Shown one piece after another: positions 9,784-55,158 of a stretch of 64,000 nt of DNA. The DNA lies in assembly GCF_018873765.1 (NCBI RefSeq), contig NC_057926.1:47483043-47547042 (forward strand), given 5' to 3'. The notes below the pieces were generated by a model. It had not been told where the DNA came from and did not search any database. It was given only the letters and a program-made list of their open reading frames with translations. The stretch's first letter is position 1. The number at the start of each line of letters is the position of its first letter. A program made the position numbers and the translations under genes. Origin of the DNA: Telopea speciosissima. Taxonomy: Eukaryota > Streptophyta > Magnoliopsida > Proteales > Proteaceae.

Positions 9784-9784
9784 A

Positions 9785-9819: not shown

Positions 9820-9820
<1 letters not shown>

Positions 9821-10489: not shown

Positions 10490-11811
10490 CTAATATCATT
10501 ATACTATTTTACCTTTTATTTTTATTCGTATCATCAATCCATTATCAGTTCAACACCGATACCAAAAAAACCATGGTCTCTAGCAATTTATTGGACGGTA
10601 GATATTCTAAATTTTGATGATTGTTATTGAATGGGTCCATTATAGGGGAAAGAAAGTGCTGGCTTGTGCAAAACACTACGCTGGTGATGGTGGGACACAA
10701 GGAGGGGTCGATGTGCACAACACGGTGACCACATATGATGACCTATATCACATCCACATGACCCCTTATATTGATGCAATCGCCATGGGGGTGTCAACTA
10801 TCATGGCTTCTTACTCTAGCTGGAACGGGATCAAGATGCATGCCAACTCTTTCCTCCTCACTCACATTCTCAAACAAGAGATGTCCTTCCAGGTAGAATA
10901 AAATTATCGTACAACATCTCTGAATTTACATTTCTACCCTTAACTTGGTCCTGACTCCCTAGTGGTCATCACTTTGTATGGGCTGCTACATGGGACAGGG
11001 TATGGTCATATCAGATTGGGAAGCAATTGACCGGATGACCAACCCACCCGGTTCACACTACAAAGAGAGCCTAAAGGCAGCCATCAACGCTGGAATCGAC
11101 ATGGTCATGATCCCTTACAAATACCAACAATACATCACATACATGACAGAGCTTGTGTCGTCCGGCGAGATTCTGATCAGCAGGATTGATGATGTTGTGA
11201 GGCGAATCCTAAGGGTGAAGTTCATTCTTGGGCTTTTTGAACAGTCCATGGCTGACCGGTCTCTCCATCCCATGGTTGGACACAAGGTTAGTCCAAAACC
11301 CAACAGAAATAATCGATTTCATTGATATGGATATTTTGGTCATTAAATTTGGTTTAACTTTTTAACCTTTTGGATCCACAGAAACACAGGGAATTGGCAA
11401 GAGAAGCCGTGAGGAAGAGCTTGGTGTTGTTGAAGAACGGGAAGGGAGAGGAGAAGATGCTTCCTTTGAGTAAGAATGCCCCCAAGATCCTTGTGGTTGG
11501 GTCTCATGCACACAACATCGGCTACCAATGTGGAGGGTGGACTGTTTCATGGAAGGGCACCTCAGGCAACATCACCAAAGGAACAATCATCTTAGAAGGC
11601 ATCAAGAGGGTTGTTAGCAAGCAGACCCAGGTCGTGTTCCAAGAAAAACCCAACAAGCAATTTGTTAATAGACGGTGATAGCAAAGAGCTTAGGCTAGCA
11701 CTGGACGGAGAGGAGACTATCAAGACTATGTGCAAGGATGTGAAATGTTTGATTATCGTTGTGTCCGGTCGACCCGTTGTGATAGAGCCTTATGTTGACA
11801 TGATGGAGGCA

Positions 11812-12435
11812 TGTCATATAGGCAACTATCGATTGGGAAAACAACTACCATTAATCAAAAAGGAATGTTACTGAGTGTAACAATCTTATTTAGTTAATGA
11901 AGGGAAGTGGATAGGATATACTTTTTTGGAGCATTTTTTTCATTTTTTCTTTGCTTTTTTTTTTTGCTAAAAGATCATTGTATTAAGGAAAAGAAAAAAA
12001 GATACAAAGAAAACAAAACCCAGACACTAGCGCCCATCCTCAAGGAATCCACTGCAGGTGGATCCAACAGGAGGGCCTGGCCTAACATCACCAAAATCGA
12101 AATCTAGGCAAACCCATGGCATCGTGAGCTAGCTGTTCTTCATTTTTTCTTTGCTTGAGTAGTAACATTAGTGAAAGAATGCCTTAGTAAAAGGAGACAA
12201 ATATATAATTGAGCAAGCTAAAGCTATAAAACAAAATAACGAACCACCGTTGTTCATCAACTGGAGGAGTAGTTGACGTGTTGATACGGGAGTCCATAAT
12301 CAAATCAAATCAAATTTGTGTCCAAAAAAAAAAAAAAGTTTTCCACACATTGTTGGAGGAGGATTGAAACACACTATATTTTCAGACTCTAAACAACTAG
12401 TGTCTTTCTTAAACCGTTCTTCGTCTTTTTAGTAT
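11812..12435. repeat. 3' flank module of copy 1
   Basis: It matches the flank seen at 44-480 and 39880-40260 (ATCGATTGGGAAAACAACTACC, then the TTGTTCATCAACTGGAGGAG region). It is interrupted by the LINE tail at 11956-12138 and then by the TIR element at 12436. No gene is present. Confidence 0.7.
11956..12138 (-). mobile_element. 5'-truncated LINE tail
   Basis: The insert lies between two exact copies of the 17-bp TSD TTCATTTTTTCTTTGCT (11939-11955 and 12139-12155). Its left end is a poly(T) tract, that is, poly(A) on the minus strand. The minus strand reads EQLAHDAMGLPRFRFW then stop, matching the end of the LINE RNase H frame also found at 19679-19938. Only about 183 bp of the element was inserted. 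Confidence 0.85.
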
Positions 12436-24230: not shown

Positions 24231-25041
24231 GCTCTGAGATGTACATCAAATACGTGCAGTTTATGGAAACAAAATATACATGAGATTGGGTCTAAGATGT
24301 AAGTTCACTTGCACAAAATAAACATAATTCATTCTCAAATAAGCATGCAACATTCTGTTCTTAGGAGACGTACACTGAAATATTCAAATATCTAAGTCGG
24401 ATTCTCACGTAACAGGATTCATCATAATCTATAAAAATTCAACTTAAAATAATATTTCTAAAAAGAAAAGATTTCAGAACCTGAATTCCACATACAGTCA
24501 CCCTATCTTTATTTAATTAAAATACGCGTTTTTTTCTGCTTTATTAGTCATGTAAATTTGGGTTTGGAGGTCAACAAAACCACAATTATTAACAAAAACA
24601 AAATTAAAAAGCACCCGGCACGCCAGTCTTACTAAGAAATGAGATTTAAATATATACTTTAACCTTCACGTCAAAATGAAAAAGTTCGTCGAAATTTCCT
24701 ACTAAAATTCCACAAAGGCACAGACGTACGTGCAGATGATTCGTCGAAATTTCCTACTATCTCCGCTTTCCAAAATGGCGGACGGGGAGGGTCGGCCGTG
24801 GGCTGACGTACGTGCAGATGATTCGTTCTCAAATGAGCATGCAACTTGCTTCACATTCTGTTGTTACAGGAGCTGTCGACAGAAATATTCCTCATTCAAG
24901 CATCTCAGTCGTCTCACGAAACCGACTTCATCAAAATCTATAAAAATTCACCCTAAAAAAAACTATAAAAAGAGGAGATTTCAGAATCTGAATTCCACAC
25001 ACAGTCGTTAATCATAATTCCTACAGAAAGGCTAAGAAAAT
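24231..25041 (+). promoter_or_regulatory. Upstream region of GH3 copy 2
   Basis: Two successive promoter-like blocks are present. The distal one (about 24230-24520) ends with a pseudo-start GAATTCCACATACAGTCA. The proximal one (about 24720-25041) has GACGTACGTGCAGATGATTC twice, ATTCTGTTGTTACAGGAG, and then the real TATA box TATAAAAA at 24964-24971, 78 bp before the ATG. The ACGTACGT cores are notable, but no binding factor can be assigned. Confidence 0.55.
24964..24971 (+). promoter_or_regulatory. TATA box of GH3 copy 2
   Basis: TATAAAAA, 78 bp upstream of the start codon at 25042, in the same context as copies 1, 3 and 4. Confidence 0.75.
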
Positions 25042-28000
25042 ATGAAGAAGACTGAAGAAATCCAAAGGAAAACCTCCCATAGCCATGATGATCGCCATTG
25101 CTCCTCTCTTCACCTCGGTTCCTTTTTCTTTCTCATCGTCATCTACTTCATCTTCCCTTCTCCTCAAGCTCGTTACAAGGATCCAACACTCCCAATCGAA
25201 AACCGAATCTCAGAACTCCTTTCTCGGATGACCACTCATGAAAAGATCGGCCAAATGGCCCAAATCGATCACTCCGTCGCCACTCCTGACGTCCTTATTA
25301 ATCATTCCATCGGTTCGTCCCCTGTGTTTTCTATAGTTTTCTGAGGCTGTGTTTGGTATGCATTCTTGAAACACGTTTTGGGTTGATTTCACATTATTGG
25401 ATAATAAAAATAACTATTTTTATCAGTCGATAATGTGAAATGAACATAGAATGCATACCAAACACAGCCTAAGTTTTTCCTACTTGTTTGAAGCCTAATT
25501 TTCTTGAATTCTTTGAAGCTCAAGAAGATGAAACACTAACGATGAAGGTTGTTCTGGTTATCAATTTCAGGGAGTGTAGTGAACGGAGTAGTGCCGATCG
25601 GTCATCCTGTTATAGCGCCAAACGCGACCCCTGCAATGTGGGCGGACATGATCGATGGGTTCCAAAAGTCTGCGTTGTCGTCAAGGCTTGGGATTCCCAT
25701 AATATATGGTACTGACGCAGTCCATGGCCATAATAACATACTCGATGCCACTATTTTTCCTCATAACATCGGCCTTGGAGCTGCAAGGTTTCTCCATCTT
25801 CCTCTTTCTCTGTTTGTGTGAATCTATGTAACTGTGGGAAATACATAAGCTTGAGATCATTTAAAGATAAATTGTTAACAGATTTTTTGCCAATATTTTC
25901 CTGTTTTCTCATTTTCTTGTGTTATTCTGATGAAGGGATGAGGATTTAATGGTGAAGATCGGAAGTGCCACTGCTTTGGAGGTTCTGGGAACCGGAATGC
26001 CGTACGCTTTTGCTCCCTGTATTGCTGTAAGCTCTCTCTCTCTCCCTTTCCTGTAAGAGCGTAGTTGGTCATTCAGATCAGTAAAGCTATACAATCATGG
26101 CAGGAATGTTCATGCTACCCCGTTCACAGCCAAAGAAATGGAATCTAAAAGGCCATTTTAGAAAATATAAAAACCTAAGAGGATATTTATGAAGTCAAAG
26201 GAATGAAATTATCCAATTTGGTTGGAAGCATGGGTAGCAGAAGCATTCTTCCAACCTGCGTAGCTGCAATTTTTTTTTCTCTTTTCAAATGTTGGCTAAT
26301 GTTTGTGAGATTTTTTCAGTTTGTATGAAGCCGTTGCCTGTTTAGGATTAATTTAATTAATGGTTACAACTTCTAGAAACCTTCTACCAACTTTAATTGT
26401 TTTTTATTTATTGAATACTTTAATTGTCTTTGTAATAAAAAAGGATTTGACCAAAAGGTTCATGCACGATTGAGTAGAGATCTTATAAAAAAATATATGT
26501 TGTTATATGGAAATCATTTATGGCAGTATTTATATAATAGGATTTAAGAAATCATATGGTCTCAATATTTTTTTTAATAAGTTTCTACCTATATAAATAA
26601 AAAAAGAAAAACACTCTTAGTTACAACCCAAATTACCAATGGAAAGGCCACTTCAAAGCCCTAACTCACTAATCAGATTAGAAACCGTAGGAGCAGCTTT
26701 CCCATCCCTAGTGGTATAGTATTCGTTGTTCCTATACCATTTCGAAGAATGAGTAGATCCCCAATCCCTCAAAAGTAGCACCTACTATTGGATAATTGAC
26801 ATCTTTTGCCACGATTGTGGTCTCGTTCATCTTTTAACTAATTAATCTCTTTGAGAATGGTTGGGGTTTTTGGTGTGTGGAACTGCAGGTGTGTAGGGAT
26901 CCGCGGTGGGGTCGATGCTACGAGAGCTACAGCGAGGATACGCAGATTGTGAGGAGCATGTCCAAGATCATACTAGGCCTACAGGGCTACCCTACTCACA
27001 ATCATACCCTTGGATACCCCTTCGTTGCTTCTGGGTACTTCCTTTTTCTGTTTAAAGTGTATTTTCATTTTCACCCCTATGTATTCTAGGTCAATTTTGC
27101 ATTCTCAGACAATAAAAACAACTATTTTAACTATTTGAGAATGTGAAATCGACCTAGAATGCATACCAAATGCAGCCCTAATATCATTATACTATTTTAC
27201 CTTCTATTTGTATTGTATCATCAATCCGGTATCAGTTCAACACCGATACCAATATAATATGATATGACCATTTCAATACCGATTCCTAAAACCGGGTGGT
27301 CTCTAGTTATTTATTGGACGGTAGAATTTCTAAATTATGATGATTGTTATTGACTGGGTCCATTACAGGGGAAGAAAAGTGCTGGCTTGTGCAAAACACT
27401 ACGCCGGCAAAGTGCTGGTAGAATTTCTAAATTATGATGATTGTTATTGACTGGGTCCATTACAGGGGAAGAAAAGTGCTGGCTTGTGCAAAACACTACG
27501 CCGGCGATGGTGGGACACAAGGAGGGGTCGACGCGCACAACACGGTGACCACATATGACGACCTATATCGCATCCACATGACCCCTTATATTGATGCAAT
27601 CGCCATGGGAGTGTCAACAATCATGGCTTCTTACTCTAGCTGGAACGGGATCAAGATGCATGCCAACTCTTTCCTCCTCACTCACATTCTCAAACAAGAG
27701 ATGTCCTTCCAGGTAGCATAAAATTATCATACAACATCTCTGAATTTAAATTTCTACCCTTAACCTGGTCCTGACTCCCTAGTGGTCATAACTTTGTGTG
27801 GGTTGCTACATGGGACAGGGTATGGTCATATCAGACTGGGAAGCAATTGACCGGATGACCAACCCACCCGGTTCACACTACAAAGAAAGCCTGAAGGCAG
27901 CCATCAATGCTGGAATCGACATGGTCATGATCCCTTACAAATACCAACAATACCTCACATACATGACGGAGCTTGTGTCGTCCGGCGAGATTCCTATCAG

Positions 28001-28943
28001 CAGGATTGACGACGCTGTGAGGCGAATCCTTAGGGTGAAGTTCATTCTTGGGCTTTTTGAACAGCCAATGGCTGACCGGTCTCTCCATCCCATGGTTGGA
28101 CACAAGGTTAGTCCCAAAACCCAACTGAATTAATCGATTTCATTGATATGGGTATTTTGGTCATTAAATTTGGTTTAACTTTTCAACTTTTTGGACCCAC
28201 AGAAACATAGGGAATTGGCAAGAGAAGCCGTGAGGAAGGGCTTGGTGTTGTTGAAGAACGGGAAGGAAGAGGAGAAGATGCTTCCTTTGAGTAAGAATGC
28301 CCCCAAGATCCTTGTGGTTGGGTCTCATGCACACAACATCGGCTACCAATGTGGAGGGTGGACTGTTTCATGGAAGGGCACCTCAGGCAACATCACCAAA
28401 GGAACAACCATCTTAGAAGGCATTAAGAGGGCTGTTAGCAAGCAGACCCAAGTGACGTTCCAAGAAAAACCCGACAAGCAATTTGTTAACAAGAACCAGG
28501 ATTCTTCCTATGCGATCGTGGTTGTTGGCGAGCTCCCATATGCAGAAACAGACGGTGATAGCAAAGAGCTTAGGCTAGCACTGGACGGAGAGGAGACTAT
28601 CAAGACTGTGTGCAAGGAGGTGAAATGTCTGGTTATCGTTGTGTCGGGTCGACCCGTTGTGATAGAGCCTTATATTGACATGATGGAGGCATTGGTGGCT
28701 GCTTGGCTTCCAGGGAGTGAAGCTGGAGCAGGGATTGCTGATGTTATATTTGGGGATTATGATTTCCAGGGTAAGCTTCCGATCACATGGTTCCGGCGGG
28801 TCGACCAGCTGCCGATGAATTTTGGGGATCCGTATTATGACCCGCTATACCCGTTTGGGTATGGGCTCCAGACTGGTACCCAATCGCACAAAAGAGGCCA
28901 TGGTGTTTCATCTTCCTCTGTATCAACTTTTTCATCTATTTGA
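25042..28943 (+). CDS. GH3 beta-glucosidase / glucan exohydrolase-like, copy 2
   Basis: Exons are 25042-25312, 25571-25787, 25936-26026, 26889-27034, 27466-27712, 27819-28106 and 28203-28943, giving 2001 nt or 666 residues with consistent phases and GT-AG borders. A hydrophobic stretch near residues 29-40 may be a signal anchor or signal peptide, suggesting secretion to the cell wall. Family landmarks: [11 protein letters not shown] (Asp139), [25 protein letters not shown], the nucleophile block ISDWE (Asp330), GGWTVSW, and PYAE (about Glu535) where barley ExoI has its acid/base. The end [10 protein letters not shown] is complete and followed by a Ser-rich tail. Hydrolysis of beta-glucosides or beta-glucans is inferred from the family. 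Oddities: Gly149 of GATIFPHN is Asp here, and a 97-bp duplication offers an earlier, frame-breaking exon 5 acceptor. A polyadenylation-like AATAAA is at 28964. Confidence 0.88.
25345..25469. mobile_element. Tourist-like MITE in intron 1 of copy 2
   Basis: GGCTGTGTTTGGTATGCATT ... GCATACCAAACACAGCC, at the same site as in copies 1, 3 and 4. The left TSD is TGA (mutated TAA) and the right TSD is TAA. Confidence 0.85.
27078..27177. mobile_element. Left-truncated MITE in intron 4 of copy 2
   Basis: The right part of the family is present (GAATGCATACCAAATGCAGCC). The left end and some flank are missing relative to 10365 and 37972. Confidence 0.7.
27320..27513. repeat. 97-bp tandem duplication over the exon 5 acceptor
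   Basis: The block from GGTAGAATTTC through ACACTACGCCGGC occurs at 27320 and again at 27417, offset 97 bp. It duplicates the end of intron 4, the acceptor TTACAG and the first 44 nt of exon 5. The first acceptor (exon at 27369) leads to a stop within about 30 codons. The second (27466) keeps the GH3 frame. Copies 1, 3 and 4 have one copy. Confidence 0.92.
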
Positions 28944-29423
28944 TTCGTTATGGTATTGATTATAATAAAAAATTTGTATATAAAGGGCTATATGAGGATC
29001 AGAAGGGTATGTAGTATTCATATAATTGTTGTTTTGATCAATGTAAATGTATGAAATACCAAGGCTGTGTTTGGTATATATGTTTTTGGAATGCATTAGA
29101 GGTTGTTTTTGCATTCTCAGGTAATAAAAACAATTATTTTTATCATATGTGAAATCGACTTAGAATGCAAACATAATAGGAGTTTTTCTGCTACATTCAT
29201 GGAAGCTTAGACAATCCAATATGGATTATAGAGGTTGATGTAGAAATCGCAATCAAGGAGTATCGATTGGGGAAACAACTACCATTAATCCAAAGGGAAT
29301 GTCAATAAGTGTAACAATTTTATTTAGTTTATGAAGGGGAGCGAATGGCATACACTTTTTTTGAGCATTTTTTTCTGTTTTTTTTATTTGCTTGACTAGT
29401 AACATTTGGGAAAGAAAGCCTTA
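28944..29423. repeat. 3' flank of copy 2 with MITE at 29063-29175
   Basis: It carries the downstream MITE (GGCTGTGTTTGGTATATATG ... AATGCAAACATAATAGG), also present after copy 4, and then the common flank (GGATTATAGAGGTTGATG). The common flank stops at 29423 after AAGAAAGCCTTA. Confidence 0.7.
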
Positions 29424-32215: not shown

Positions 32216-32277
32216 GGAAATATCATCCCCCTCTATCCATAATATCAACCTTGGTAGCCAAGTTTTGAATAATGATA

Positions 32278-34022
32278 GGGTAATTTACACATATCAACCC
32301 TGAGGTTTAATGAAAATATGATTTTATCCTCCAGTTTTGAAAAATTCTGCGTACCCCCTTGAGGTTTACAAATATTAACAAATACACCAATTCCGTCAGT
32401 TCATGACTAACAGTGTTAAAATCAATGGATAAAGTTACAAAAATACCCCTTCAAGGAAAAAAAAAAAAGAAGCCTGCAACTCATCTTCCCCAAATCGATT
32501 GGGGAAGATGAGTTGCAGGTATCCCCATCGATTGCTCCATCCATGGCTTCTAATGGAACATTTCCGGTGAGCTTCCGGTGTTAATTTGGATTAATGAAAC
32601 TAGGGTTTTCTTGGCTTTTAGAATATTTCCAATGATTTATTCCTCTGTGCAAGAAAACACTTTCTGATTCCCCCAGACGACCCAGCTTCAGATGGTGTTC
32701 CTAAAATTTCAAGGCAAGACACTGCAGGCAACTTGGACGACGATTTCTTCCTCTGATGATGAAGAAAACACTTTCTCGTGTCCGAAGAAGACACAGCTTC
32801 AGATGGGTCATGGCCAGACACTGCAAGCAACTTGAATGACGATTTCTTCCTCTGATCATGAAAACACTTTAGGGTTGCATTTGTCATCTGGCTGCATTCA
32901 CCGGCTGGGAAGACTCCTCTACACATAGCGGCTGAAATGGTCTGCCCGGACATGGTTGCTGTTTTACTCGACCATCATGCAGATCAAAATGTTCGAGCCG
33001 TCGATGGTATCACACCACTTGACGTGCTTCGAACTCTCACTTCAGATTTTCTTTTTAAAGGGCCAATTCCTGGGCTTTCTCATATTGAACCCAACAAGCT
33101 ACGTCTTTGCTTAGAATTGGCTCAATTTTGGAATTGGTGATTATGAGTCTCATTTTTGGGATTTCAGAAACGGAAGGAGAAGAGGGTTGGGTGGCTTATG
33201 GAAGTTGCCGGCGATTTGACTCGAACGAAGGCAGAGGTGGGTTGGCAACCAGGATTGGAGGTTTAGAGGGTATGAAATCGTTGCTGGGATTGAAGCTTCA
33301 GTTAGTAGAGCTGAAGAGGAAGCAGATAGGTAAAAGGTAGATTTGGGGAAGATCTCTCTCCCTTCTTCAGCATCTTTCTTTGCTTATATTTTCTCTGTTA
33401 TTTAATGTTTAAACCTCTCTCTCTCTCTCTCCCCTCTTCCTTGCTTCTCATCCGAAAAGGAAAAAAACCGAGTTTTCTTCAAAACCCCTTTGCAGAAGAA
33501 GATTAACTAATCAAAAACTCTCTTTCTGATCTAAGAGGATCTGCCTTGATTAATTGGCTTTGATAATTCTTGTTTTTGAAAACTGGAAATTTTAATTCTT
33601 CAGTTGCATCTCATCAGGTTTAAAACCCAGGAATCAGATCCGGAATGGAATTTGCCTTGAATCATTGGAAATATGCTAAAAACCAAGAAAACCCTAGTTT
33701 CGTTAATCCAAATTAACATCGGAAGCTCACCGGAGATGTTCCATAGAAGCCATGGTTGGAGCAATCGATGGGGATACCTGTAACTCATCTTCCCCAATCG
33801 ATTTGGGGAAGATGAGTTGCAGGTTTTTTTTTTTTCTTTTTTTTCTTGAAGGGGTATTTTTGTAACTTTACCCCTTGATTTTAACACCATTAGTCATGAA
33901 CTGACGGAATGGGTTTATTTGTTAACGTTTGTAAACCTCAGGGGGGTACGCAGAATTTTTCAAAACTGGGGGGTAAAATCATACTTTCGTAAAACCTCAG
34001 GGGTGGTATGTGTAAATTACCC
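32278..34022. mobile_element. Inner Mutator-like element with a captured gene fragment
   Basis: The ends are GGGTAATTTACAC and GTGTAAATTACCC, with TIRs of about 390 bp that include ACCTCAGGGG, AACTGACGGAAT and the GGGGAAGATGAGTTGCAGG block. An exact 9-bp TSD ATAATGATA lies at 32269-32277 and 34023-34031. It carries an ankyrin-coding fragment (32898-33125), a degenerate tandem duplication of about 100 bp (32650-32875), and no transposase. It fits a Pack-MULE. Confidence 0.88.
32898..33125 (+). pseudogene. Captured BOP/NPR5-type ankyrin-repeat fragment
   Basis: The frame reads SPAGKTPLHIAAEMV, then LLDHHADQNVRAVDGITPLD, LRTLTSDFLFKG and HIEPNKLRLCLELAQ. This matches the last ankyrin repeats of plant BLADE-ON-PETIOLE (NPR5/NPR6, NOOT) BTB-ankyrin co-regulators. 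About 75 codons are open. The frame then ends FWNW-stop, so the C-terminal domain and the BTB domain are absent. It lies wholly inside the TIR element 32278-34022 and is a transduplicated fragment, not a working gene. Family recognition is from memory of the conserved motif. Confidence 0.85.
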
Positions 34023-34601
34023 ATAATGATAATATCCTTCCCTACTTTTGAAAGATTCTATCAAGTGTACCTAATGGTTAAAAAACGCCATTAAGTGATG
34101 ACGTGGGCATTTTCAATTTTTCTAAAACCTCAGATTACCCTTAATATAATTTTATTCCAATTTTACCCTTCTCAACCCCAAACCCTTATTTCATCTTCTT
34201 CCCCAAAAACCCTTTTTTGCGTTTCTTCATCTTCTTGTTCTTCTTCTTCCTCGCATGCCCCAGCCCTGCAAGGGATAGAGAGTATTGAGAGACTCAATCC
34301 TGTTATCATATCTTCTACTTTCTTCTATTTTCTATTTTTTTTTTAATTCCAATCAATTCTGTGACTGTGATCTGCTGCAAATACCAACCCTGATCGATTC
34401 TTAATTTCTGCTCCTACAACATATTCAATTGTTAGAAGGCTGTTGAGAAAGTATTGCTTGAATTCCTGATTGAAGGACCTACAGAATAGTGCATGCGATC
34501 TGGTTCTAGGGGTTTTATTGCTGAAATCCTAGTTCAGTCGATATCCCCATCTAAGCATCAACTGCTGCTGATATTTTGAAGATCAAACTAGTAGGGTTAC
34601 T

Positions 34602-34781: not shown

Positions 34782-35564
34782 GGGTTACTAGACAGTAGAT
34801 GAATGAAAAAGATAATAGAAATCAAATCTCCAAAGCTTAATTTCAGTTTTAATAAACCAGCGGATTCTCTATTTTTCTACCTATTTCAGCATGGTTTGCT
34901 TTGTTAATTAAATCTGATTTTGTAACCTGTTCAGCCCCAACTTTTGGCATCTCCTAGGTAACCTTCGACCTTAGTTTGGTGGGCTTCAGATCAATATCTT
35001 GGCTGCTATCTGAAATCACCCAAAACCTGCAAATTTTGGAATCCAGAATTTTGGGTATCGTTTTTTGGAGTTTTGGAAAGGGAGTGGGTCACAGTGTGAT
35101 GATAAATTTGGTTAATGGAAGGAAAAGAGAGATGGGTTCGGTTAGGGTGTTTGGAGAAGAAGAAGAAGAATGCGGGAAGAAGATTGGAGATGGAGATGAG
35201 GGCTTGGGTTTCAGTTTCGTATAGAGAAAGAGATGGGTAATATCCAGTCCCAGAAGCTCCATTGTATCTCCTGTTCCATGCTCGACGAATTGCCTCAGAA
35301 ACTTTTTCCAGTCGAATGGTAGATGACTCAACACCGTTGCACCGATCCTCATCCGTTCTCAAATCAAAATTCTCTAGAAGGAGAAAGAAGAAAAGGGTAA
35401 TATCGTCTTTTGAACTGTTATTTTAATACTGTTAGCCATTTAGGGTACGGTCAATAGAATCTTTCAAAAGTAAGGGAGGGCATTATCATTATTCAAAATT
35501 TGGGTACTAGGTTGATATTATGGATACTTAGAGGGGAGGGGGTGATATTTCCACAAAAAAAAAC

Positions 35565-35572
35565 TATAAAAG
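35565..35572 (+). promoter_or_regulatory. TATA box of GH3 copy 3
   Basis: TATAAAAG, 77 bp before the ATG at 35642 and only 12 bp after the right end of the inserted element. Confidence 0.75.
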
Positions 35573-35641
35573 AGGAGATTTCATAATCTAAATTCCACAC
35601 ACAGTCGTTAAAACTAATTCCTACAGAAAGGCAAAGAAAAT

Positions 35642-38600
35642 ATGAAGTTCACAGAAATCCAAAGGAAAACTTCCCATACCCATGGTGATCGCCATTGCTG
35701 CTCTCTCCACCAGCTCTTTTCCTTTCTCTTTCTCTTCATCTTCATCTTTCCTTCTGCTTCAGCCGAACCAGCTCAAGCTGGTTACAAGGATCCAACACTC
35801 CCAATCGAATACCGAATCTATGATCTCCTTTCTAGGATGACCACCCATGAAAAGATCGGCCAAATGGCCCAAATCGATCTCTCCGTCGCCTCTCCTGATG
35901 TCCTTATTAATCATTCCATCGGTTCGTCCCCTCTGTTTTATATAGTTTTTTTTTAAGATCGTATTTGGTATGCTTGGAAAGCAGTCTAGGTTGATTTCAC
36001 ATTCTCGGATGATAAAAACAACTTTCTTTAATATTCGAGAATAAGAAATCAACATAGAATGCATACCAAACACAGCCTAAGTTTTTCCTTGTTGTTTGAA
36101 GCTTAATTTTCTTGAATTCTTTGAAGCTCAAGAAGATGAAACATTGACGATGAGGGTTGTTCTGGTTATCAATTTCAGGGAGTATAGTGAACGGAGTAGT
36201 GCGGATCGGTCATCCTGTTATAGCGCCAAACGCGACCCCTGCAATGTGGGCAGACATGATCGATGGGTTCCAAAAGTCTGCGTTGTCGGCAAGGCTTGGG
36301 ATTCCCATAATATATGGTACTGACGCAGTCCATGGCCATAATAACATACTCGGTGCTACTATTTTTCCTCATAACATCGGCCTTGGAGCTGCAAGGTTTC
36401 ACTATCTTCCTCTTTCTCTGTTTGTGTGAATCTGTGCAACTGTGGGAGAAACAGAAGCTTGAGATCATTTCAAGATAAATTGTCATTAGATTTTTGGCCA
36501 ATATTTTCCTGTTTTCTAATTTTCTTGGTTTGTTCTGATGAAGGGATGAGGATTTAATGGTGAAGATCGGAAGTGCCACTGCTTTGGAGCTTCAGGGAAC
36601 CGGAATGCCGTACACTTTTGCTCCGTGTATAGCTGTAATCTCTCTCTCTCTCTCTCTGGTCAGAGCGAAGTCGGTCATTCAGAACAGTAAAGCTATACAA
36701 CCGTTAAATGAATGTTCATGCTACCCGGTTCACAGCCAAAGAAATGAAATCTAAAAGGACATTTTATAAAGTACAAAAACCTTAGAGGGTATTTATGAAG
36801 CCAAAGGACTGAAATTATTCAATTTCTTTGGTTGGAAGCACGGGTAGCAGAAGCATTCTTGCAACCTGGGTAACAACAATTCTTTTTTTCTCTTTCAAAT
36901 GATGGAAAATGTTTGTGAGATTTTTTAGTTTACAGGAAGCCCTTGCCTGGTTGGGATTAATTTTATTAGGGGTTTCAACTTCTAGAATCCTTGTACCTAC
37001 TTTAATTGCCTTTGTAATAAAAAAATTTGACCAAAAGATTCATGCACAATTGTGTATCATATGAAAAGGGGGAAGTTTTCATATACGGCCTGTAAGCATG
37101 CACGGTTGTGTCCCCTCTCATAAAGAGTTGCAAAAGTTAAAAACCCCCACCCATTAATAAATGCCTTGAAACTCTCACCCTCTCACATATACGGCTTACA
37201 CAGCCGTGTATGAAAACTTTCCCCATATGAAAATCATTTAATGCAGTATTTATATAATAGGATTCATATTCATTGAAAAAAAATACATGTTATCTAAAAG
37301 AAATTTAAAGTAAGGTTTCAACTTCTTAATCCACTATTTTTGTTAAGAGAACAATTTTTTTTAATTAATTCTCATTTAAAATGATTTTTAATTATTATGG
37401 TTAAGTAATCATATGATCTCAAAATTTTTTTATAACTTTCTACTTGTATAAATTAAAAAAAATATCTTAGTTCCAACCTAAATTACTAGTGGAAATGCCA
37501 CTTCAAAGCCCCAACTCACTAATCAGGTTAGAAACTGCAGGAGCAGCTTTCCCATCGCTAGTAGTTTAGTACACGTTGTTCTGATACCATTTTGAAGAAA
37601 GAGTAGGTCCCCGATCCCCCAAAAGTAGCACCTACAAATGGATAATCAACATCTCTTACCTCGGTTGTGGTCTCGTTCATCTTTTAACTAATTAATCTCT
37701 TTGAACATGGTTGGGGTTTTTTGTATGTGGAATTGCAGGTGTGTAGGGATCCACGGTGGGGTCGGTGCTATGAGAGCTACAGTGAGGATACACAGATTGT
37801 GAGGAGTATGGCCAAGATCATACTAGGCCTACAGGGCTACCCTCCTCAGAATCATACCCTTGGTTACCCCTTCGTCGCTTCTGGGTACTTCCTTTTTCTG
37901 TTTAAAGTGTACTTCCGCTTTCACCCTTATTGAGGTCGGATCCTTTTCACATACGTGTACCTGAAGATCTAGGCTGTGTTTGGTATGTATTCTAGCTCAA
38001 TTTTGCATTCTCAGACAATAAAAACAAGTATTATTTCTATTCGAGAATGCAAAATCGATCTAGAATGCATTTCAAGAATGCATACCAAACGCAGCCCCAA
38101 TATCATTTACTATTTTACCTTTTAATTGTATCGTATCATCAATCCGGTATCAGTCCAACACCGATACCAACACATAATATGATATGACCAATTCAATATC
38201 GATTCCTAAAACCGTGGTCTCTAGTTATTTATTGGACGTTAGAGGTTCTAAATTATGATGATTGTTATTGAATGGATCTATTACAGGGGAAGGAAAGTGC
38301 TAGCTTGTGCAAAACACTACGCCGGTGATGGTGGGACACAAGGAGGGGTCGACGCGTACAACACGGTGACCACATATGATGACCTGTATCACATCCACAT
38401 GACCCCTTATATTGATGCAATCGCCATGGGGGTGTCAACTATCATGGCTTCTTACTCTAGCTGGAACGGGATCAAGATGCATGCCAACTCTTTCCTCCTC
38501 ACTCACATTCTCAAACAAGAGATGTCCTTCCAGGTAGCATAAAATTATCATACAACATCTCTGAATTTACATTTCTACCCTTAACCTGGTCCTAACTCCC

Positions 38601-39841
38601 TAGTGGTCATCACTTTGTATGGGCTGCTACATGGGACAGGGTATGGTCATATCAGACTGGGAAGCAATTGACCGGATGACCAACCCACCTAGTTCACACT
38701 ACAAAGAAAGCCTGAAGGCAGCCATCAACGCTGGAATCGACATGGTCATGATCCCTTACAAATACCAGCAATACCTCACATACATGACGGAGCTTGTGTC
38801 GTCCGGCGAGATTCCGATCAATAGGATTGACGATGCTGTGAGGCGAATCCTTAGGGTGAAGTTTGTTCAAGGGCTTTTCGAACGGCCCATGGCTGACCAG
38901 TCTCTCCATCCCATGGTTGGACACAAGGTTAGTCCAAAACCTAACTGAATTAATCGATTTTATTGATATGGGTGTTTTGGTTATTAAATTTTGTTTAACT
39001 TTTTAACCTTTTGGACCCACAGAAACATAGGGAATTGGCAAGAGAAGCTGTGAGAAAGAGCTTGGCGTTGTTGAAGAATGGGAAGGGAGAGGAGAAGATG
39101 CTTCCTTTGAGTAAGAATGCCCCCAAGATCCTTGTGGTTGGGTCTCATGCACACAACATCGGCTACCAATGTGGAGGGTGGACTATATCATGGAAGGGCA
39201 CCTCAGGCAACATCACCAAAGGAACAACCATCTTAGAAGGCATCAAGAGGGTTGTTAGCAAGCAGACCCGGGTCATGTTCCAAGAAAAACCCGACAAGCA
39301 ATTTGTTAACAAGAACCGGGATTCTTCCTATGCAATCGTGGTTGTCGGTGAGCTCCCATATGCAGAAATAGACGGTGATAGCAAAGAGCTCAGACTAGCG
39401 CTGGACGGGGAGGAGACTATCAAAACTGTGTGCAAGGAGGTGAAATGTCTAGTTATCGTTGTGTCAGGCCGACCCGTTGTGATAGAACCTTATGTTGACA
39501 TGATGGAGGCATTGGTGGCTGCTTGGCTTCCAGGGAGTGAAGCTGGAAAAGGAATTGCTGATGTTATATTTGGGGATTATGATTTCCAGGGTAAGCTTCC
39601 AACGACATGGTTCCGACGGGTCGACCAGCTGCCGATGAATTTTGGGGATCCGTATTATGACCCACTGTACCCGTTTGGGTATGGGCTCCAGATGGGTATC
39701 CAATCACATAAAAGAGGCCATGGTGTTTTATGTTCCTCTGCATCATCTTTTTCATCTATTTTTATCATCGGTGAAATCGACTTAGCATGCAAGCATAATA
39801 GGAGTTTTTCTACTACATTCATGGAACCGAAGGCAATCTAA
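35642..39841 (+). CDS. GH3 beta-glucosidase / glucan exohydrolase-like, copy 3, extended C-terminus
   Basis: Exons are 35642-35921, 36179-36395, 36544-36634, 37739-37884, 38287-38533, 38640-38927 and 39023-39841, giving 2088 nt or 695 residues, all phases consistent. The N-terminus has a hydrophobic core ending [10 protein letters not shown], a plausible signal peptide. Catalytic landmarks are intact: [35 protein letters not shown] (Asp333) and PYAE (about Glu538). Relative to copies 2 and 4, a 200-bp deletion between CTATTT repeats removed the normal stop. The protein therefore runs 26 residues further ([15 protein letters not shown] ... EPKAI) in former 3' flank, and the downstream MITE start and polyadenylation region were lost. 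Its distal promoter is displaced by the insertion at 32216-35552, so expression may differ from the other copies. Confidence 0.86.
35957..36077. mobile_element. Tourist-like MITE in intron 1 of copy 3
   Basis: A sister of 9231-9355 with a decayed left end (GATCGTATTTGGTATG) and a good right end (GCATACCAAACACAGCC). TAA lies on both sides. Confidence 0.8.
37068..37224. mobile_element. 157-bp TIR MITE in intron 3 of copy 3
   Basis: The inverted ends are GGGGAAGTTTTCATATACGG and CCGTGTATGAAAACTTTCCC. An exact 9-bp TSD ATATGAAAA lies at 37059-37067 and 37225-37233. Copies 2 and 4 have unoccupied sites (TTATATGGAAATCATTTA, TTATACGAAAATCATTTA), so it arrived after copy 3 separated. Confidence 0.88.
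37972..38096. mobile_element. Tourist-like MITE in intron 4 of copy 3
   Basis: GGCTGTGTTTGGTATGTATT ... GCATACCAAACGCAGCC, at the same site as in copies 1 and 4. Confidence 0.8.
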
Positions 39842-41399
39842 GATGGATTATAGAGGTTGATGTAGAAATCGCAACCAAGGAATATCGATTGGGGAAACAA
39901 TTACCATTAATCCGAAGGGAATGTCAACTAGTGTAACAATCTTATTTAGTTTATGAAGGGAAGCGGATGGCATACACTTTTTTTGAGCATTTTTTCAGTT
40001 TTTTCTTTGCTTGTCTAGTAACATTTGGGAAAGAAAGCCTTAGTAAAAGGAGACAAATAATTGTGCAAGCTAAATCTATAAAATAAAATAGAGTATACGA
40101 ACCACTGTTGTTCGTCAACTAGAGGAGTAGTTGCCGAGTACGTTTATAGGGGAGTCCATAATCAAATCAAATCAAATCTATGTCACAAAAGAAGTTCCAC
40201 ACATTGTTGGAGGAGGATTGAAACACACTATATTTTCAGATTCTAAATCGTCTTCTTTAATATTAGATTGAGTTGTCTATGTTTACAGCAAATGACATTC
40301 TTAATCAGTTTTTTTTTTTTTTTTTTTACTCATGTTGTGTTTTTGTTTGGAAGAGAGCAGACCTCGGCACAATGGTAAGGTTGCTCCATTGCGACCTAGT
40401 GGTCATGGGTTCATGTTAAGAAACAGCCTCCTCCAAACCATGTAGTGGCAGGAGCCTGATGTACTAGGTACACCAATGGTGAAGCTAATGCACCAGCAAA
40501 AGTGGCTTCTCTTTGTAAATCCTGACATCCTAATATTTAAGATCATTTCTTTCTTTCAATAATATTTTCATTTCTTCTTGATGACAAAAAAAGTATCTAA
40601 TTATTCATCTGTTCAATTTGAACCTACGCATATCTTGCAATGTGGAGAAATTAATCTTTGAAGATTCGGTGTATCTACAGAAAGTTGAACAACAGAAAAT
40701 GCAAGAGCTTAAAAAAAGTTGAAAACATAGCAAAGCATGTGTTTGAGTCGGATAAAAAATGACCAAATTAACCGGCCAACTTAAGGAAAACAATTTACCA
40801 ATAAAAAGAACCGTCATAGAGGCGACTATGGAAAGATAATTTTCCCAATAAAAAGGAAAAATGTTTTCCTTCACTACGCGATGAAGATTCACCATACCAT
40901 CCCAGATTAAAAGACCCTATGAGGTTTTTGTAAGTTCCCCCAAAATATCCTCCGGTGCACATCTGAATCCATTCATCGTGGCTGAAGGAAAACTCGTCCT
41001 AAAAAGAAAACTGTAAAAAATAAATAAATAAAATAAAGATTAGTTCATGTTTTTATTTGATCCAATCTTATACAAGTATACTAATTCAAATTTCAAACAT
41101 AATGTATTGAGAAAAAGATAACCCGAGAAAATAATAGGTCAACCTAACAACTAAGAAAAGTTATAAAAAAAAGGTCAAAATGCTCAAAACTCAAATGTGT
41201 GAAGATTATTAAACGTGAGGAGATCTATTACCTCGTTCTATTTTTCTTAATGGATCAGTCATGATTCATCCATGACACAAGATAAGATGACTCACTCATG
41301 AGTCATGACTATCCAGATAAGTCCATTCTTACTCTTTATAGCATTATCACTCAGAATCTGGATGGAACTGGCTGGGATGTATATTTTCATTTTTTATTG
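39842..41399. repeat. 3' flank module of copy 3
   Basis: The cleanest example of the common flank, matching 44-1379 plus 3083-3424 without the element found there. Apart from the SINE at 40348-40540 it holds nothing gene-like. Confidence 0.7.
40348..40540 (+). mobile_element. tRNA-type SINE, copy c
   Basis: Box-A-like ATGGTAAGGTTGC is conserved. The box-B-like stretch is changed to GGGTTCATGTT, so it is probably inactive. Confidence 0.6.
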
Positions 41400-49440: not shown

Positions 49441-50416
49441 TTGCGTGCCAAACACAATGAACGAAACTCTACACGTACGTGCACATGCACGTACATATGA
49501 GAGGTAACCACCTGTCCTATTTTTGCCATTTACAACGGGAGGAGTATTTATGGAAATTTGTAATAAAATAATTAGGTTGAATTCATTAGTGCCTTAATAT
49601 AATAGGTTGTTGCTAAATTTGAAAACAATGAGAGTCAAACATAGATTGGTTGAAGTGCATGTATATGTGAAATTTGTAATAACATAATTGGGTTGAATTC
49701 ATTTAAATACATTAGTGATTAGTATAATAGTATTCAATGTTTCTATGAATATTTTGGATTTTCTATAAATTAAAATCATATTTTTTTCAATGTGGCATGT
49801 TGAGTACATCCAACAAGTATTAAATTCAATGTAAAACGGATAAACCATTTAGGAACTAAGTATCTAAAACCGTGACCAAAACCATTTTGGGCCAATAAAC
49901 CAAAACCATTTAGAAACCGAGAAATCGAAACTGTTTAGTAAATGGTTTTAGTTTCAATAAGTGAAATCGTTTAATAAACGATGCGGCTCTGATTTCACCT
50001 AAAAATCCTTGCATTGAACCGCTACACCTGTCCTATTTTTTGCCATTTACAAGGGGAAGAGTATTTATGGAAACAAAATAAACATGTGATTAGCTCTGAA
50101 ATTTACGTTCAACCTGCTGCACATACGTGCTGTTTATGGAAATAAAATAAACATGTGATTGGCTCAAAGATATATGTTCACCTGCACACATACGTGGACA
50201 GATGATCCATTCTCATATGAGCATGCAACTTGCTCCTCTTACAAGAGATATACACAGAAATATTCAAACATCTAAGTCGTCTCACGTCTCACGAAACCGA
50301 ATTCATCAAAATCTAAAAAAATTTCAACCAAAAAAAACCTATAAAAGGAGGAGATTTCAAAATCTGAATTCCACATTCAGTCGCTAATCGTCATTTCTAC
50401 AGAAAACTAAGAAAAT
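49441..50416 (+). promoter_or_regulatory. Upstream region of GH3 copy 4
   Basis: It contains the distal block shared with 44241-44608 and 47456-47640, then the common module (ATGTGATTGGCTC, ACACATACGTGGACAGATGA, GAGCATGCAACTTGCTCC). It ends in TATAAAAG at 50340-50347, 77 bp before the ATG. It has no intervening transposon, unlike copy 3. Confidence 0.55.
50340..50347 (+). promoter_or_regulatory. TATA box of GH3 copy 4
   Basis: TATAAAAG, 77 bp upstream of the start codon at 50417, in the shared context GAGGAGATTTCAAAATCTGA. Confidence 0.75.
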
Positions 50417-53400
50417 ATGGAGAAGACAGAAATCCAAAGAAGCAAAACCTCCCATAGCCATGGCAATCGCCATTACTCTTCTCTCCACTTCTTTTCCTTT
50501 CTCTTTCTCTTCATCTTCATCTACCCTTCTGCTTCAGCAGAAACAGCTCAAGCTCGTTACAAGGATTCAACACTCCCGATCGAATACCGAATCTCAGATC
50601 TCCTTTATCAGATGACCACTCATGAAAAGATCGGCCAAATGGCCCAAATCGATCGCTCCGTCGCCTCTCCTGACGTCCTTATTAATCATTCCATCGGTTC
50701 GTCCTCTCCTCCGTTTTCTATAGTTTTCTAAGGCTGTGTTTGATATGCGTTTTTAGAACGCATTCTAGGATGATAATCATCTGAGAATGCAAATTCAACA
50801 TAGAATACATTACAAGAATCATACCAAACACAAACTAAGTTTTTCTCTCTCTTTTTTTTTTTTTAACTTAATTTTCTTGAATACTTTGAAGCTCAAGAAG
50901 ATGAAACAGTGACGATTATTAATTTCAGGGAGTGTATTGACTGGAGTAGTGCCGAACGGTCGTCCTGTTATAGCACCAAACGCGACCCCTGCAATGTGGG
51001 CGGACATGGTCGATGGGTTCCAGAAGTCTGCGTTGTCGGCAAGGCTCGGGATTCCCATAATATATGGTACTGACGCAGTCCATGGCCATAATAACGTCCT
51101 CGGTGCCACTATTTTTCCTCATAACATCGGCCTTGGAGCTGCAAGGTTTCTCTGTCTTCCTCTTTTTCTGTTTGTTTGAATCTATGCTACTGTGAGAGAA
51201 ACAGAAGCTTGAGATCATTGAAAGATAAATTGTTATCAGATTTTTGGCCAATATTTTCCTGTTTTCTCATTTTTCTTGTTTTGTTCTGATGAAGGGATGA
51301 GGAATTAATGGTGAAGATCGGAAGTGCCACTGCTTTGGAGGTTCTGGGCACCGGAATGCCGTATGCTTTTGCTCCCTGTATTGCTGTAAGCTCTCTCTCT
51401 CTCTCTCTCTGTCTCTACGGCAAGAGCAATCGAAGTCGGTCATTCAGAGCAGTAAGGCTATACAACGGTTGCAGGATTGTTCATGCTACCCGGTTCACAG
51501 CCAAAGAAATGGAATCAAAAAGGACATTTTAAAAAATACAAAAACCTAAGAGAGTATTTATGAAGCCAAAGGAGTGAAATTATCCAATTTCTTTGGTTGC
51601 AAGCACGGGTAGCAGGAGCAATGACACCCTGGCCCGGATGGCTCTATCGGCTGTCGCTTACGTGCTCAACAGTTTGGCCAGTATCTTCTCCTTGGTTGCG
51701 TGAGTTATGTTCGTTGTAGCATGTTTCTCCTAAATAAAGTTCACCTACTTACAAAAGAAAAACTAAAAATAAGGGTTACAACTTCTAGAAGCCTTCTACC
51801 TTCTTTATTTGTCTTTGAAATAAAAAAGAATTGACCAAAAGATTCATGCACGATTGTGTAGAGACCGTATAAAAAAATATATGTTATTATACGAAAATCA
51901 TTTAATGCAGTATTTATATAAAATGATATTCCATATGATTTATATTCATTGAAAAAAACACATGTTATCTAAAAGAAATTTAAGGATTCAACCTCTTAAT
52001 TCACTAATTATGTTAAGATAAGAATTTTTTTTTAATTCATTCTCATTTAAAATGATTTTTAATTATTCTGATTAAGAAATCATATGGTCTAAATTTTTTT
52101 TATAAGTTTCTACTTGTATAAATAAATAAAAAAAACTTAGTTCCAACCTAAATTACCAGTGGAAAGGCCACTTCAAAGCCCTAAGTCACTAATCGGGTTA
52201 GAAACCGGAGCAACTTTCCAATCCCTAGTAGTATAGTATCAGCTGTTCCTATACCATTTCGAAGAAAGAGTAGGTCCCCGATCCCTCAAAAGTAGCACCT
52301 ACTATTGGATAATCAACATCTCTTACCACGGTTGTGGTCTCGTTCATCTTTTAACTAATTAATCTCTTTGAAAATGGTTGGGATTTTGGGTGTGTGGAAT
52401 TGCAGGTGTGTAGGGATCCGCGGTGGGGTCGGTGCTACGAGAGCTACAGCGAGGATACACAGATTGTGAGGAGCATGGCCAAGATCATACTAGGCCTACA
52501 AGGCAACCCTCCTCACAATCATACCCTTGGCTACCCTTTCCTCTCTTCTGGGTACTTCCTTTTTCTTTTTAATGTGTATTTCCTTTTTCACCCCTATTGA
52601 GATCGGATCCTCTACAAATACTTGATCTAGACTGTGTTTGGTATGTATTCTAGGTCAATTTTGCATTCTTAGACAATGAAAACAACTATTCTTATTATTC
52701 GACAATGCAAAATTGACCTAGAATGAATTCCATGAATTCATAACAAACGCAGCCCTAATGAGTCAATTTGAAGTTTTGTATGTGATGGTTCTGCTTTCAA
52801 AGATGCCAATCCAGTATCATATATTTGCAATTTCACCTTCTATATGTATCGTATCATAGATCCGTATGAATTGATATGACCAATCCGATATCGATTCCTA
52901 AAACCGTGGTCTCTAGTCATTTATTGAATGGTGGAGATTCTAAATTATGATGATTGTTATTGAATGGGTCCATTACAGGGGAAGGAAAGTGCTGGCTTGT
53001 GCAAAACACTACGCCGGCGATGGTGGGACACAAGGAGGGGTCGACGAGTACAACACGGTGACCACATATGACGACCTGTATCGCATCCACATGACCCCTT
53101 ATATTGATGTAATCGCCATGGGGGTGTCAACTATCATGGCTTCTTACTCTAGCTGGAACGGGCTTAAGATGCATGCCAATCCTTTCCTCCTCACTCGCAT
53201 TCTCAAACAAGAGATGTCCTTCCAGGTAGCATAAATTATCATACAACATCTCTGAATTTACATTTCTACCCTTGACCTGGTCCTGACTCTCTAGTGGTCA
53301 TCACTTTGTATGGGCTGCTACATGGGACAGGGTATGGTCATATCAGACTGGGAAGCAATTGACCGGATCACCAACCCACCCGGTACACACTACAAAGAGA

Positions 53401-54455
53401 GCCTGAAAGCCGCCATCAATGCCGGAATCGACATGGTGATGATTCCTTACAATTACCAGCAATACTTCACAGACATGACGGAGCTTGTGTTGTCCGGCGA
53501 GATTCTGATCAATAGGATTGACGATGCTGTCAGGCGAATCCTAAGGGTGAAATTCATTCTTGGGCTTTTTGAACAGCCCATGGCAGACCGGTCTCTCCAT
53601 CCCATGGTTGGACACAAGGTTAATCCCGAAACCCAACTAAAATAATCGATTTCATTGATATGATTATTTTGGTCATTAAAATTGATTTAACTTTTTTACC
53701 TTTGGGTCCCACAGAAACACAGGGAATTGGCAAGAGAAGCTGTGAGGAAGAGCTTGGTGTTGTTGAAGAACGGGAAGGGAGAGGAGAAGATGCTTCCTTT
53801 GAGTAAGAATGCCCCCAAGATCCTTGTGGTTGGGTCTCATGCACACAACATCGGCTACCAATGTGGAGGGTGGACTATATCATGGCAGGGCACCTCAGGG
53901 AACATCACCAAAGGAACAACCATCTTAGAAGGCATCAAGAGGGTTGTTAGTAAGCAGACCCAGGTTGTGTTCCAAGAAAAACCCGACAAGCAATTCGTTA
54001 ACAAGAACCAGGATTCTTCCTATGCAATCGTGGTTGTCGGCGAGCTCCCATATGCGGAAACAGATGGTGATAGCAAAGAGCTTAGGCTATCGCTAGACGA
54101 GGAGGAGACTATCAAGACTGTGTGCAAGGAGGTGCAATGTCTGGTTATTGTCGTGTCGGGTAGACCCGTGGTGATCGAGCCTTATGTGGACATGATGGAG
54201 GCATTGGTCGCTGCTTGGCTTCCAGGGAGTGAAGCAGGAACAGGAATTGCTGATGTTATTTTTGGGGATTATGATTTCCAGGGTAAGCTTCCGAGGACAT
54301 GGTTCAGGCGGGTCGACCAGCTACCGATGAATTTTGGGGATCCGTATTATGACCCACTGTATCCATTTGGGTATGGGCTCCAGATGGGTATCCAATCACA
54401 CAAAAGAGGCCATGGTGGTTCATCTTCCTCTGCATCATCTTTTTCATCTATTTGA
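50417..54455 (+). CDS. GH3 beta-glucosidase / glucan exohydrolase-like, copy 4
   Basis: Exons are 50417-50696, 50929-51145, 51295-51385, 52406-52551, 52979-53225, 53331-53618 and 53715-54455, giving 2010 nt or 669 residues. Phases and GT-AG borders all agree, and no lesion is seen, so this is the best-preserved copy. A signal-peptide-like start (hydrophobic FLFLFIFIY, then PSASAE) suggests secretion. Landmarks: [48 protein letters not shown], nucleophile block ISDWE (Asp333), GGWTISW, PYAE (about Glu538) and [10 protein letters not shown] at the end. The usual plant GH3 length is about 600-660. The substrate cannot be read from sequence; beta-linked glucosides or cell-wall glucans are the family expectation. 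Intron 3 carries a foreign insert near 51620-51770. Confidence 0.92.
50732..50835. mobile_element. Tourist-like MITE in intron 1 of copy 4
   Basis: GGCTGTGTTTGATATGCG ... CATACCAAACACAAAC between TAA repeats. Shorter than its sisters through internal deletion. Confidence 0.78.
51620..51770 (+). mobile_element. Probable LINE tail in intron 3 of copy 4
   Basis: It replaces about 90 bp of the intron seen in copy 2. It reads [20 protein letters not shown] and then stops, similar in style to the end of LINE RNase H frames, followed by an A-rich stretch. No TSD was found. Confidence 0.4.
52630..52755. mobile_element. Tourist-like MITE in intron 4 of copy 4
   Basis: GACTGTGTTTGGTATGTATT ... AACAAACGCAGCCC, at the same site as in copies 1 and 3. 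Confidence 0.78.
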
Positions 54456-55158
54456 TTCATTATGATATAGATTATAACAAAAAATTTGTAGATAAAGGGC
54501 TATATGAGGATCAGAAGGGTATGTTTGTAGCATTCTTATAATTGTTGTTGTGATCAATGAAAATTTATTAAATACCAAGGCTATGTTTCGTATGTGTTCT
54601 TAGATTGCATTATAGGTTGATTTTGCATTCTCGGGTAATGAAAACAACTATTTTTATCAACTGTGAAATCGACTTAGAATGCAAGCATAATAGGAGTTTT
54701 TTCGCTACATTCATGGAAGCGGACGCAATCTAATATGGATTGTAGAGGTTGATGTAGAAATCGCAACCAAAGAGTATCGATTGAGGAAACAACTACCATT
54801 AATCCAAAGGGAATGTCAATAAGTGTAACAATTTTATTTAGTTTATGAAGGGGAACGGATGGCATACACTTTTTTTGAGCATTTTGTTATATTTTTTTAT
54901 TTGCTTGACTAGTAACATTTGGGAGAGAAAGCCTTAGTAAAAGGAGACAAATAATTGCAAGCTAAATCTTTAAAATAATATAGAGTATAAGAACCACCAT
55001 TGTTCATCAACTAGAGGAGTAATTGCCGAGTACGTTGATAGGGGAATCCATAATCAAAATCAAATCAAATCTATTTCAAAAAGAAGCTTTACACATTGTT
55101 GGAGAATGGAGATTGAAACACACTATATTTTCAGATTCTAAATTACTAGTGTCTTTCT
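54456..55158. repeat. 3' flank of copy 4 with MITE at 54579-54690
   Basis: It carries the downstream MITE also seen after copy 2 (GGCTATGTTTCGTATGTGTT ... GAATGCAAGCATAATAGG), then the common flank. The RTE insertion at 55172 interrupts it. No gene is seen. Confidence 0.65.

What the first reader, a model, noticed from the sequence alone, without database searches (positions are those of the whole stretch)
32898..33125. BOP/NPR5-type ankyrin fragment captured by a Mutator-like element
The peptide motifs (TPLHIAAEM, LLDHHAD, VDGITPLD, LTSDFLFKG, IEPNKLRLCLEL) match the end of the ankyrin domain of BLADE-ON-PETIOLE proteins. The piece lies entirely within TIRs with a perfect 9-bp TSD. A developmental regulator fragment now sits upstream of a GH3 gene. 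It could produce small RNAs against the parent gene.
Basis: partly seen in the sequence, partly recalled or inferred. Interest (0 to 1): 0.75.

Follow-up and report, generated by a model that had tools for sequence, protein, structure and literature searches.

The report
Jumping gene carrying BOP gene fragment
A small plant transposon has picked up a 227-base piece of a leaf- and flower-patterning gene (BOP) together with scraps of other genes; this is a documented, ordinary kind of gene-fragment shuffling, and the captured piece looks like an inert passenger.

Summary
Window 32278-34022 is a 1745-bp non-autonomous element with ~360-bp terminal inverted repeats (91%) and a perfect 9-bp duplication. 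It holds 227 bp (32900-33126) of BOP/NPR5-type coding sequence. The donor exists: a BTB-ankyrin gene without an NPR1 C-terminus on contig C10 (93.8%; second BOP on C8, 79%).

Nine other places carry all (C2) or the last 149 bp (eight loci) of the same piece, all ending at the same donor base: one capture, amplified. The cargo is a mosaic: antisense EF-hand-gene fragment, a 32-bp TIR1/AFB auxin-receptor scrap, BOP, then a segment shared with sister elements carrying a larger TIR1/AFB fragment. BOP probably replaced most of an older TIR1 cargo.

Changes among copies are 27 nonsynonymous:10 synonymous, as expected without constraint; one copy has a stop codon. It reads as a Pack-MULE-type element with a dead passenger, about 1.6 kb upstream of a glycoside-hydrolase-3 (not auxin GH3) gene. 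Small-RNA action is possible (36 of 207 21-mers match the donor locus exactly) but untested. No autonomous partner was identified. New member of a known kind.

The parts
32269..32277 (.). left 9-bp target site duplication ATAATGATA
   Evidence: identical to 34023-34031
32278..32637 (+). left terminal inverted repeat, starts GGGTAATTTACACATATCAACCCTGAGG
   Evidence: 91.5% to 33660-34022 reversed; its first 31 bases with up to 3 mismatches occur 582 times forward and 585 times reverse in the genome, 0 and 0 for the reversed-pattern control
32473..32519 (.). palindrome inside the left TIR (21-nt arms, 100%)
   Evidence: repeat I5
32632..32870 (-). captured fragment of an EF-hand-type gene (donor frame on - strand), from its internal tandem-repeat part
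   Evidence: 96.2% over 239 bp to C3:17590326-17590564 (L059:1727-1965); the 298-aa frame there scores EF-hand_1 E 6.8e-10, in another part of the frame
32869..32900 (-). 32-bp scrap of TIR1/AFB auxin-receptor sequence
   Evidence: 31/32 to sister element L022 and 27/30 to the AFB-like gene L062. As a 30-mer: 29/30 in 700 bp of L022; best of 620 control 30-mers from the window in the same 700 bp 20/30. Only 17/30 in L020 and 15/30 in L021
32900..33126 (+). captured BOP/NPR5 ankyrin fragment, sense orientation
   Evidence: 93.8% ungapped to the ankyrin frame of the BOP gene on C10 (L018:3919-4145, - strand); 79.3% to the C8 paralogue
33130..33333 (.). shared segment B1, origin unidentified; in sister elements it extends up to 63 bp further to the left
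   Evidence: two frames of it in the window gave no Pfam hit
33347..33543 (.). segment B2, also found upstream of a dUTPase-like reading frame on C4 (L071)
   Evidence: 83% at C4:14351474-14351671; the frame in L071 matches dUTPase chains, best E 1.3e-8, but gave no Pfam hit at E 0.01
33660..34022 (-). right terminal inverted repeat
34023..34031 (.). right 9-bp target site duplication ATAATGATA
35642..39841 (+). neighbouring glycoside hydrolase family 3 gene (approximate limits; one unit of a tandem array); not part of the element
   Evidence: Glyco_hydro_3 in frames 36154-36426 and 38604-38945, and below its cut-off in 37688-37930; Glyco_hydro_3_C in 38999-39838; start codon read by eye

Best explanation
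A Pack-MULE-type non-autonomous DNA transposon. SHOWN: TIRs, TSD, matching donor sequences, mosaic cargo, ten BOP-bearing places whose BOP piece ends at the same donor base, no sign of protein-level constraint among copies. INFERRED: an ancestor already loaded with a TIR1/AFB fragment plus segment B suffered a break; repair copied in BOP and EF-hand-gene pieces by template switching, leaving a 32-bp TIR1/AFB scrap; a transposase supplied in trans then spread the result. One derived lineage lost the first 78 bp of the BOP piece and has a different left part. The window copy landed between two units of a glycoside-hydrolase-3 array and is now an inert passenger without a BTB domain.
For: TIRs and perfect TSD. 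BOP piece ends at the same donor base in 10 of 10 BOP-bearing places; the bases of the right junction were printed and agree for 3 of them (window, L009, L010). L020-L028, fetched because they match segment B, carry segment B without BOP in 9 of 9, with up to 63 bp more of it on the left. The TIR1 scrap is collinear with L022, 229 bp from scrap end to segment B in both; one L020 frame matches TRANSPORT INHIBITOR RESPONSE 1, E 1.9e-25. Overlaps of 2 and 1 bp at the segA/TIR1 and TIR1/BOP joins. Copies 27N:10S, against about 75% N expected (p 0.85). TSD with at most one mismatch in 5 of 10 BOP-bearing elements (window, L009, L011, L014, L015).
Against: No autonomous MULE with these TIRs was identified. 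Of two long same-TIR stretches read, L072 has a DUF659 frame (hAT-type, label recalled), perhaps a nested insertion, and L073 has no frame longer than 112 aa. TSDs were not found in the other 5 of 10 BOP-bearing elements. The scrap is clear in L022 but not in the other two TIR1-bearing sisters (17/30 in L020, 15/30 in L021), so the replacement story leans on L022 and the gene L062. Repair by template switching is inferred from structure only.
Confidence: 0.9

Rival explanations
1. The captured fragment is a source of small RNAs that reduce expression of the C10 BOP gene.
For: 36 of 207 21-mers of the window fragment match the C10 BOP locus exactly, 74 of 207 in the C2 copy, 10-31 of 129 in the other eight. 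Long TIRs could form a hairpin if the whole element were transcribed (inference). [quoted passage not shown]
Against: No expression or small-RNA data were available. Of the 25 inverted repeats shown of 26 found, only one 13-nt arm touches the BOP piece. The donor frames are open. For the C8 paralogue the window copy has 0 of 207 exact 21-mers; the other nine have 0-7.
Confidence: 0.06
2. The fragment encodes or contributes to a selected short protein (for example an ankyrin micro-protein interfering with BOP).
For: The window copy keeps a 92-codon open frame across the whole BOP piece; 5N:9S against the donor taken naively.
Against: Five of those nine synonymous differences are shared by every copy that covers them, so they say nothing about the window copy; the window branch alone is 5N:3S, with two multi-state sites left out; copies together are 27N:10S (p 0.85 against neutral; still p 0.28 if three of the shared differences are moved to the copies). 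The C2 copy has a stop.
Confidence: 0.02
3. The BOP piece is a local segmental duplication or processed pseudogene, not transposon cargo.
For: The same genome holds another partial duplication of the BOP 3' end on C1 (L060, L061).
Against: The window piece is an internal 227-bp stretch of one frame, flanked by unrelated segments inside TIRs with a TSD, and recurs at nine dispersed places with the same right end.
Confidence: 0.01

Closest known systems
Pack-MULEs of rice (Jiang et al. 2004, seen only as a reference in PMC13317346 and PMC8211194)
   Same: Non-autonomous, inverted repeats, host gene fragments inside; multi-donor mosaics and lack of constraint recalled as common
   Different: This TIR family is not tied here to an autonomous MULE; cargo comes from BOP, EF-hand and TIR1/AFB-type genes
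Genic MULEs of Oryza (PMC4858842, passages read)
   Same: TIRs usually 100-500 bp, TSD usually 8-11 bp, derived putative genes tend to have multiple parental sequences, only a small proportion constrained by Ka/Ks
   Different: Those putative genes are generally GC-rich; this element is 40.8% GC and its BOP piece 46.7%
Pack-TIRs of metazoans formed by gap filling or template switching (PMC8277862, passages read)
   Same: Chimeric cargo, short microhomology at joins, repeated transposition of one chimera
   Different: There most captures come from nearby sequence; here the donors lie on contigs C10, C3 and C8 and the window copy on C11, though where the capture happened is unknown

Membership tests
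Pack-MULE | Long TIRs (usually 100-500 bp) | tested here: met
   360/363 bp, 91.5%; range from a passage of PMC4858842
Pack-MULE | TSD of 8-11 bp | tested here: met
   perfect 9 bp
Pack-MULE | Internal sequence from host genes, no transposase | tested here: met
   BOP, EF-hand and TIR1/AFB-type matches; Pfam gave only ankyrin families in the 92-aa frame and nothing in two segment-B frames; the internal part is about 1 kb
Pack-MULE | TIR homology to an autonomous MULE with a transposase | tested here: inconclusive
   PF10551 transposase is abundant (150 matches scored of 827 candidates) but none was linked to these TIRs; the place lists are partial and were compared by eye only
BOP/NPR5-type fragment | Donor has BTB plus ankyrin domains | tested here: met
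   two open frames of L018: BTB E 4.6e-14; Ank_2 E 9.7e-14 and DUF3420 E 3.4e-12; splicing not tested
BOP/NPR5-type fragment | Lacks the NPR1-type C-terminal domain (recalled as separating BOP from NPR1) | tested here: met
   PF12313 found at 15 places, none at the C10 or C8 BOP genes; present at the less similar relatives on C2, C3 and C306/C768
BOP/NPR5-type fragment | Orthology to named Arabidopsis BOP1/2 by a tree | not testable with these tools
   no annotated plant protein set; likeness to Arabidopsis BOP is recalled
siRNA-producing captured fragment | 21-24 nt RNAs from the fragment | not testable with these tools
   no small-RNA reads

The most novel reading that the evidence does not exclude
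One MULE family has loaded pieces of both a boundary regulator (BOP) and an auxin receptor (TIR1/AFB) into dispersed copies, and small RNAs from them tune these developmental genes in trans.
Probability: 0.04. Interest if true: 0.7.

Novelty: new member of a known kind. Interest (0 to 1): 0.3.

Why it matters
It is a readable case of cargo turnover in a Pack-MULE-type family: donor, captured piece, sister elements with the probable older cargo, and a 32-bp remnant of that cargo are present in one genome. That lets the order of captures be proposed and the template-switching model be examined at the joins. It also shows how a naive comparison with the donor (5N:9S) can look like constraint on a captured fragment when most of the synonymous differences are shared by all copies.

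Tried and rejected
Selected-ORF reading: disfavoured after splitting changes by branch. Independent captures in each copy: disfavoured because the BOP piece ends at the same donor base in 10 of 10. Segment B1 as a recognisable gene: no Pfam hit in two window frames or one L023 reverse frame; a longer L023 frame gave a weak Expansin_C match (E 1.9e-4, 21.9 bits, cut-off 24.6) outside the shared part, and an L027 frame gave DUF7309 at E 0.076. Pfam gave nothing for three TIR1-like frames of L020 and only sub-threshold LRR matches for the AFB-like gene frame; the TIR1 label rests on the PDB match of one L020 frame and, for L062, on similarity. Autonomous partner: not resolved. PDB search with the fragment lists generic ankyrin proteins first, so it does not separate families; the own-genome comparison does. 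Empty-site test with other units of the tandem array: the sequence right next to the insertion has no close duplicate in the window.

Literature: 'Pack-MULE' + 'BLADE-ON-PETIOLE' gave 1 paper, where Pack-MULE occurs once, in the reference list. 'Pack-MULE' + 'Proteaceae' gave 1 paper, the Nelumbo genome, seen as a listing only. 'transduplication' + 'ankyrin' + 'Mutator-like' gave 0. These searches cover only the held open-licence library.

Full report
Host. The window lies at C11:47483043-47547042 of an assembly of 822,943,500 bases in 1287 contigs. Size and chromosome number fit Telopea speciosissima, given as 823 Mb and 11 scaffolds in a table of PMC13080361 (passages read). That is an inference, not a test.

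Observation. The element runs 32278-34022. Its TIRs are 91.5% identical and it is flanked by ATAATGATA on both sides. Pfam sees only ankyrin families in it.

Donor. A whole-genome search with window 32850-33360 gave 27 matches. A BOP-type gene on C10 matches 227 bp at 93.8%; a second on C8 matches at 79%. The C10 gene has a BTB domain in one open frame and ankyrin plus DUF3420 in another; splicing was not tested. PF12313, the NPR1 C-terminus, is found at 15 places but at neither BOP gene. Relatives that do have it nearby match the donor frame at only 35-38%. So the fragment is of BOP type; the name BOP itself rests on recalled likeness to the Arabidopsis proteins.

Copies. Besides the window, C2 (L009) carries all 227 bp and eight loci (L010-L017) carry the last 149 bp. 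A protein search of the genome lists the same ten among 19 matches. The BOP piece ends at the same donor base in all ten; the right-hand junction was printed for the window, L009 and L010 and agrees. TSDs with at most one mismatch were found for 5 of 10. Bodies of 5 of the 8 members of the 149-bp group were compared and differ by K2P 0.015-0.045; window and C2 bodies differ by 0.055; the window's two TIRs by 0.077.

Mosaic cargo. Window 32632-32870 is 96% identical to part of an EF-hand-bearing frame on C3, in antisense. Window 32869-32900 is 31/32 identical to a TIR1/AFB-derived stretch in sister element L022 and 27/30 to an AFB-like gene on C8. In a matched control, the 30-mer scores 29/30 in 700 bp of L022 and none of 620 other window 30-mers exceeds 20/30. 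The larger TIR1/AFB fragment is present in L020, L021 and L022, upstream of segment B; one translated piece of L020 matches the solved TIR1 protein at E 1.9e-25. But the 30-mer itself scores only 17/30 in L020 and 15/30 in L021. In L022 the 32-bp stretch lies 229 bp before segment B; in the window the gap is also 229 bp and is filled by BOP. The equal length may be coincidence: short exact matches in L020 and L021 put the spacing there at 257-258 bp. Segment B continues up to 63 bp further left in L020-L028 (50 bp in L027), where the BOP-bearing elements instead have BOP. The simplest order is TIR1/AFB plus segment B first, BOP and the EF-hand piece later. Overlaps of 2 and 1 bp at two joins resemble the microhomology (1-36 bp, median 2 bp) reported for Pack-TIRs in animals (PMC8277862, passages).

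Selection. Changes among the copies are 27N:10S, close to the roughly 75% nonsynonymous expected without constraint (p 0.85; two multi-state sites left out). Differences shared by every copy that covers them against the donor are 0N:5S. They lie on the donor side or on the common stem of the copies: by the C8 paralogue, two (67, 130) point to the donor, one (46) to the copies, two (64, 139) are open. The contrast 0:5 against 27:10 has Fisher p 0.0035. If position 46 is moved to the copies it is 0.012, and if 46, 64 and 139 are moved it is 0.12, while the copies stay compatible with neutrality (p 0.28). An earlier polarisation gave 0N:6S for the donor. So absence of constraint on the copies is well supported; the constraint on the donor branch is likely but rests on few sites. 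L009 has a stop.

Family. The 31-base TIR end with up to three mismatches occurs 582 times forward and 585 times reverse, against 0 and 0 for the reversed-pattern control, so the family is large. Nine further loci were fetched, seven chosen as TIR pairs and two as segment-B matches. L066 carries a Stress-antifung fragment (E 9.9e-27); L063 and L064 show similar peptides by eye. One frame each from L065, L067, L068 and L069 gave no Pfam hit at E 0.01. So at least three kinds of gene fragment recur in this family. MULE transposases are common in the genome, but none was linked to these TIRs.

Function. The element lies about 1.6 kb upstream of a glycoside hydrolase family 3 gene in a tandem array. 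No evidence links it to that gene's expression. Small-RNA action on the donor is possible on sequence grounds (36 of 207 exact 21-mers) and has precedent in maize (review passage, PMC13317346), but nothing here tests it.

Noticed in passing
L060 and L061 (C1:87213000-87217000 and C1:87749900-87753900): A separate duplication of the 3' end and downstream flank of the C10 BOP gene (85-93%), in two copies about 540 kb apart, joined to another coding sequence that looks synaptotagmin-like by eye (not tested).
   Followed up: partly
L020, L021, L022: Sister elements carry a TIR1/AFB auxin-receptor fragment; the best non-element match is at C8:2712363-2712789 (85%).
   Followed up: partly
L063, L064, L066: Same-TIR elements carry a Stress-antifung domain fragment (Pfam run on L066 only).
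   Followed up: partly
L072 (C1:79361390-79368190): 6757-bp stretch with the same TIR ends and a perfect 9-bp TSD, containing a DUF659 frame (hAT-type, label recalled), perhaps a nested insertion.
   Followed up: partly
window 32473-32519 and 33776-33824: Near-perfect palindrome inside each TIR; a similar stretch recurs in other family members.
   Followed up: no
window 8850-12393, 24955-29423, 35547-40248, 50321-55143: Tandem array of glycoside hydrolase family 3 units by DNA self-match, with parts of further units at the window ends; Pfam run on frames of three of them only.
   Followed up: partly
window 58593-61199 (-): Retroelement-like frames (RVT_1 at 60222-61196, RVT_3 at 58593-59144), split over several frames.
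   Followed up: no
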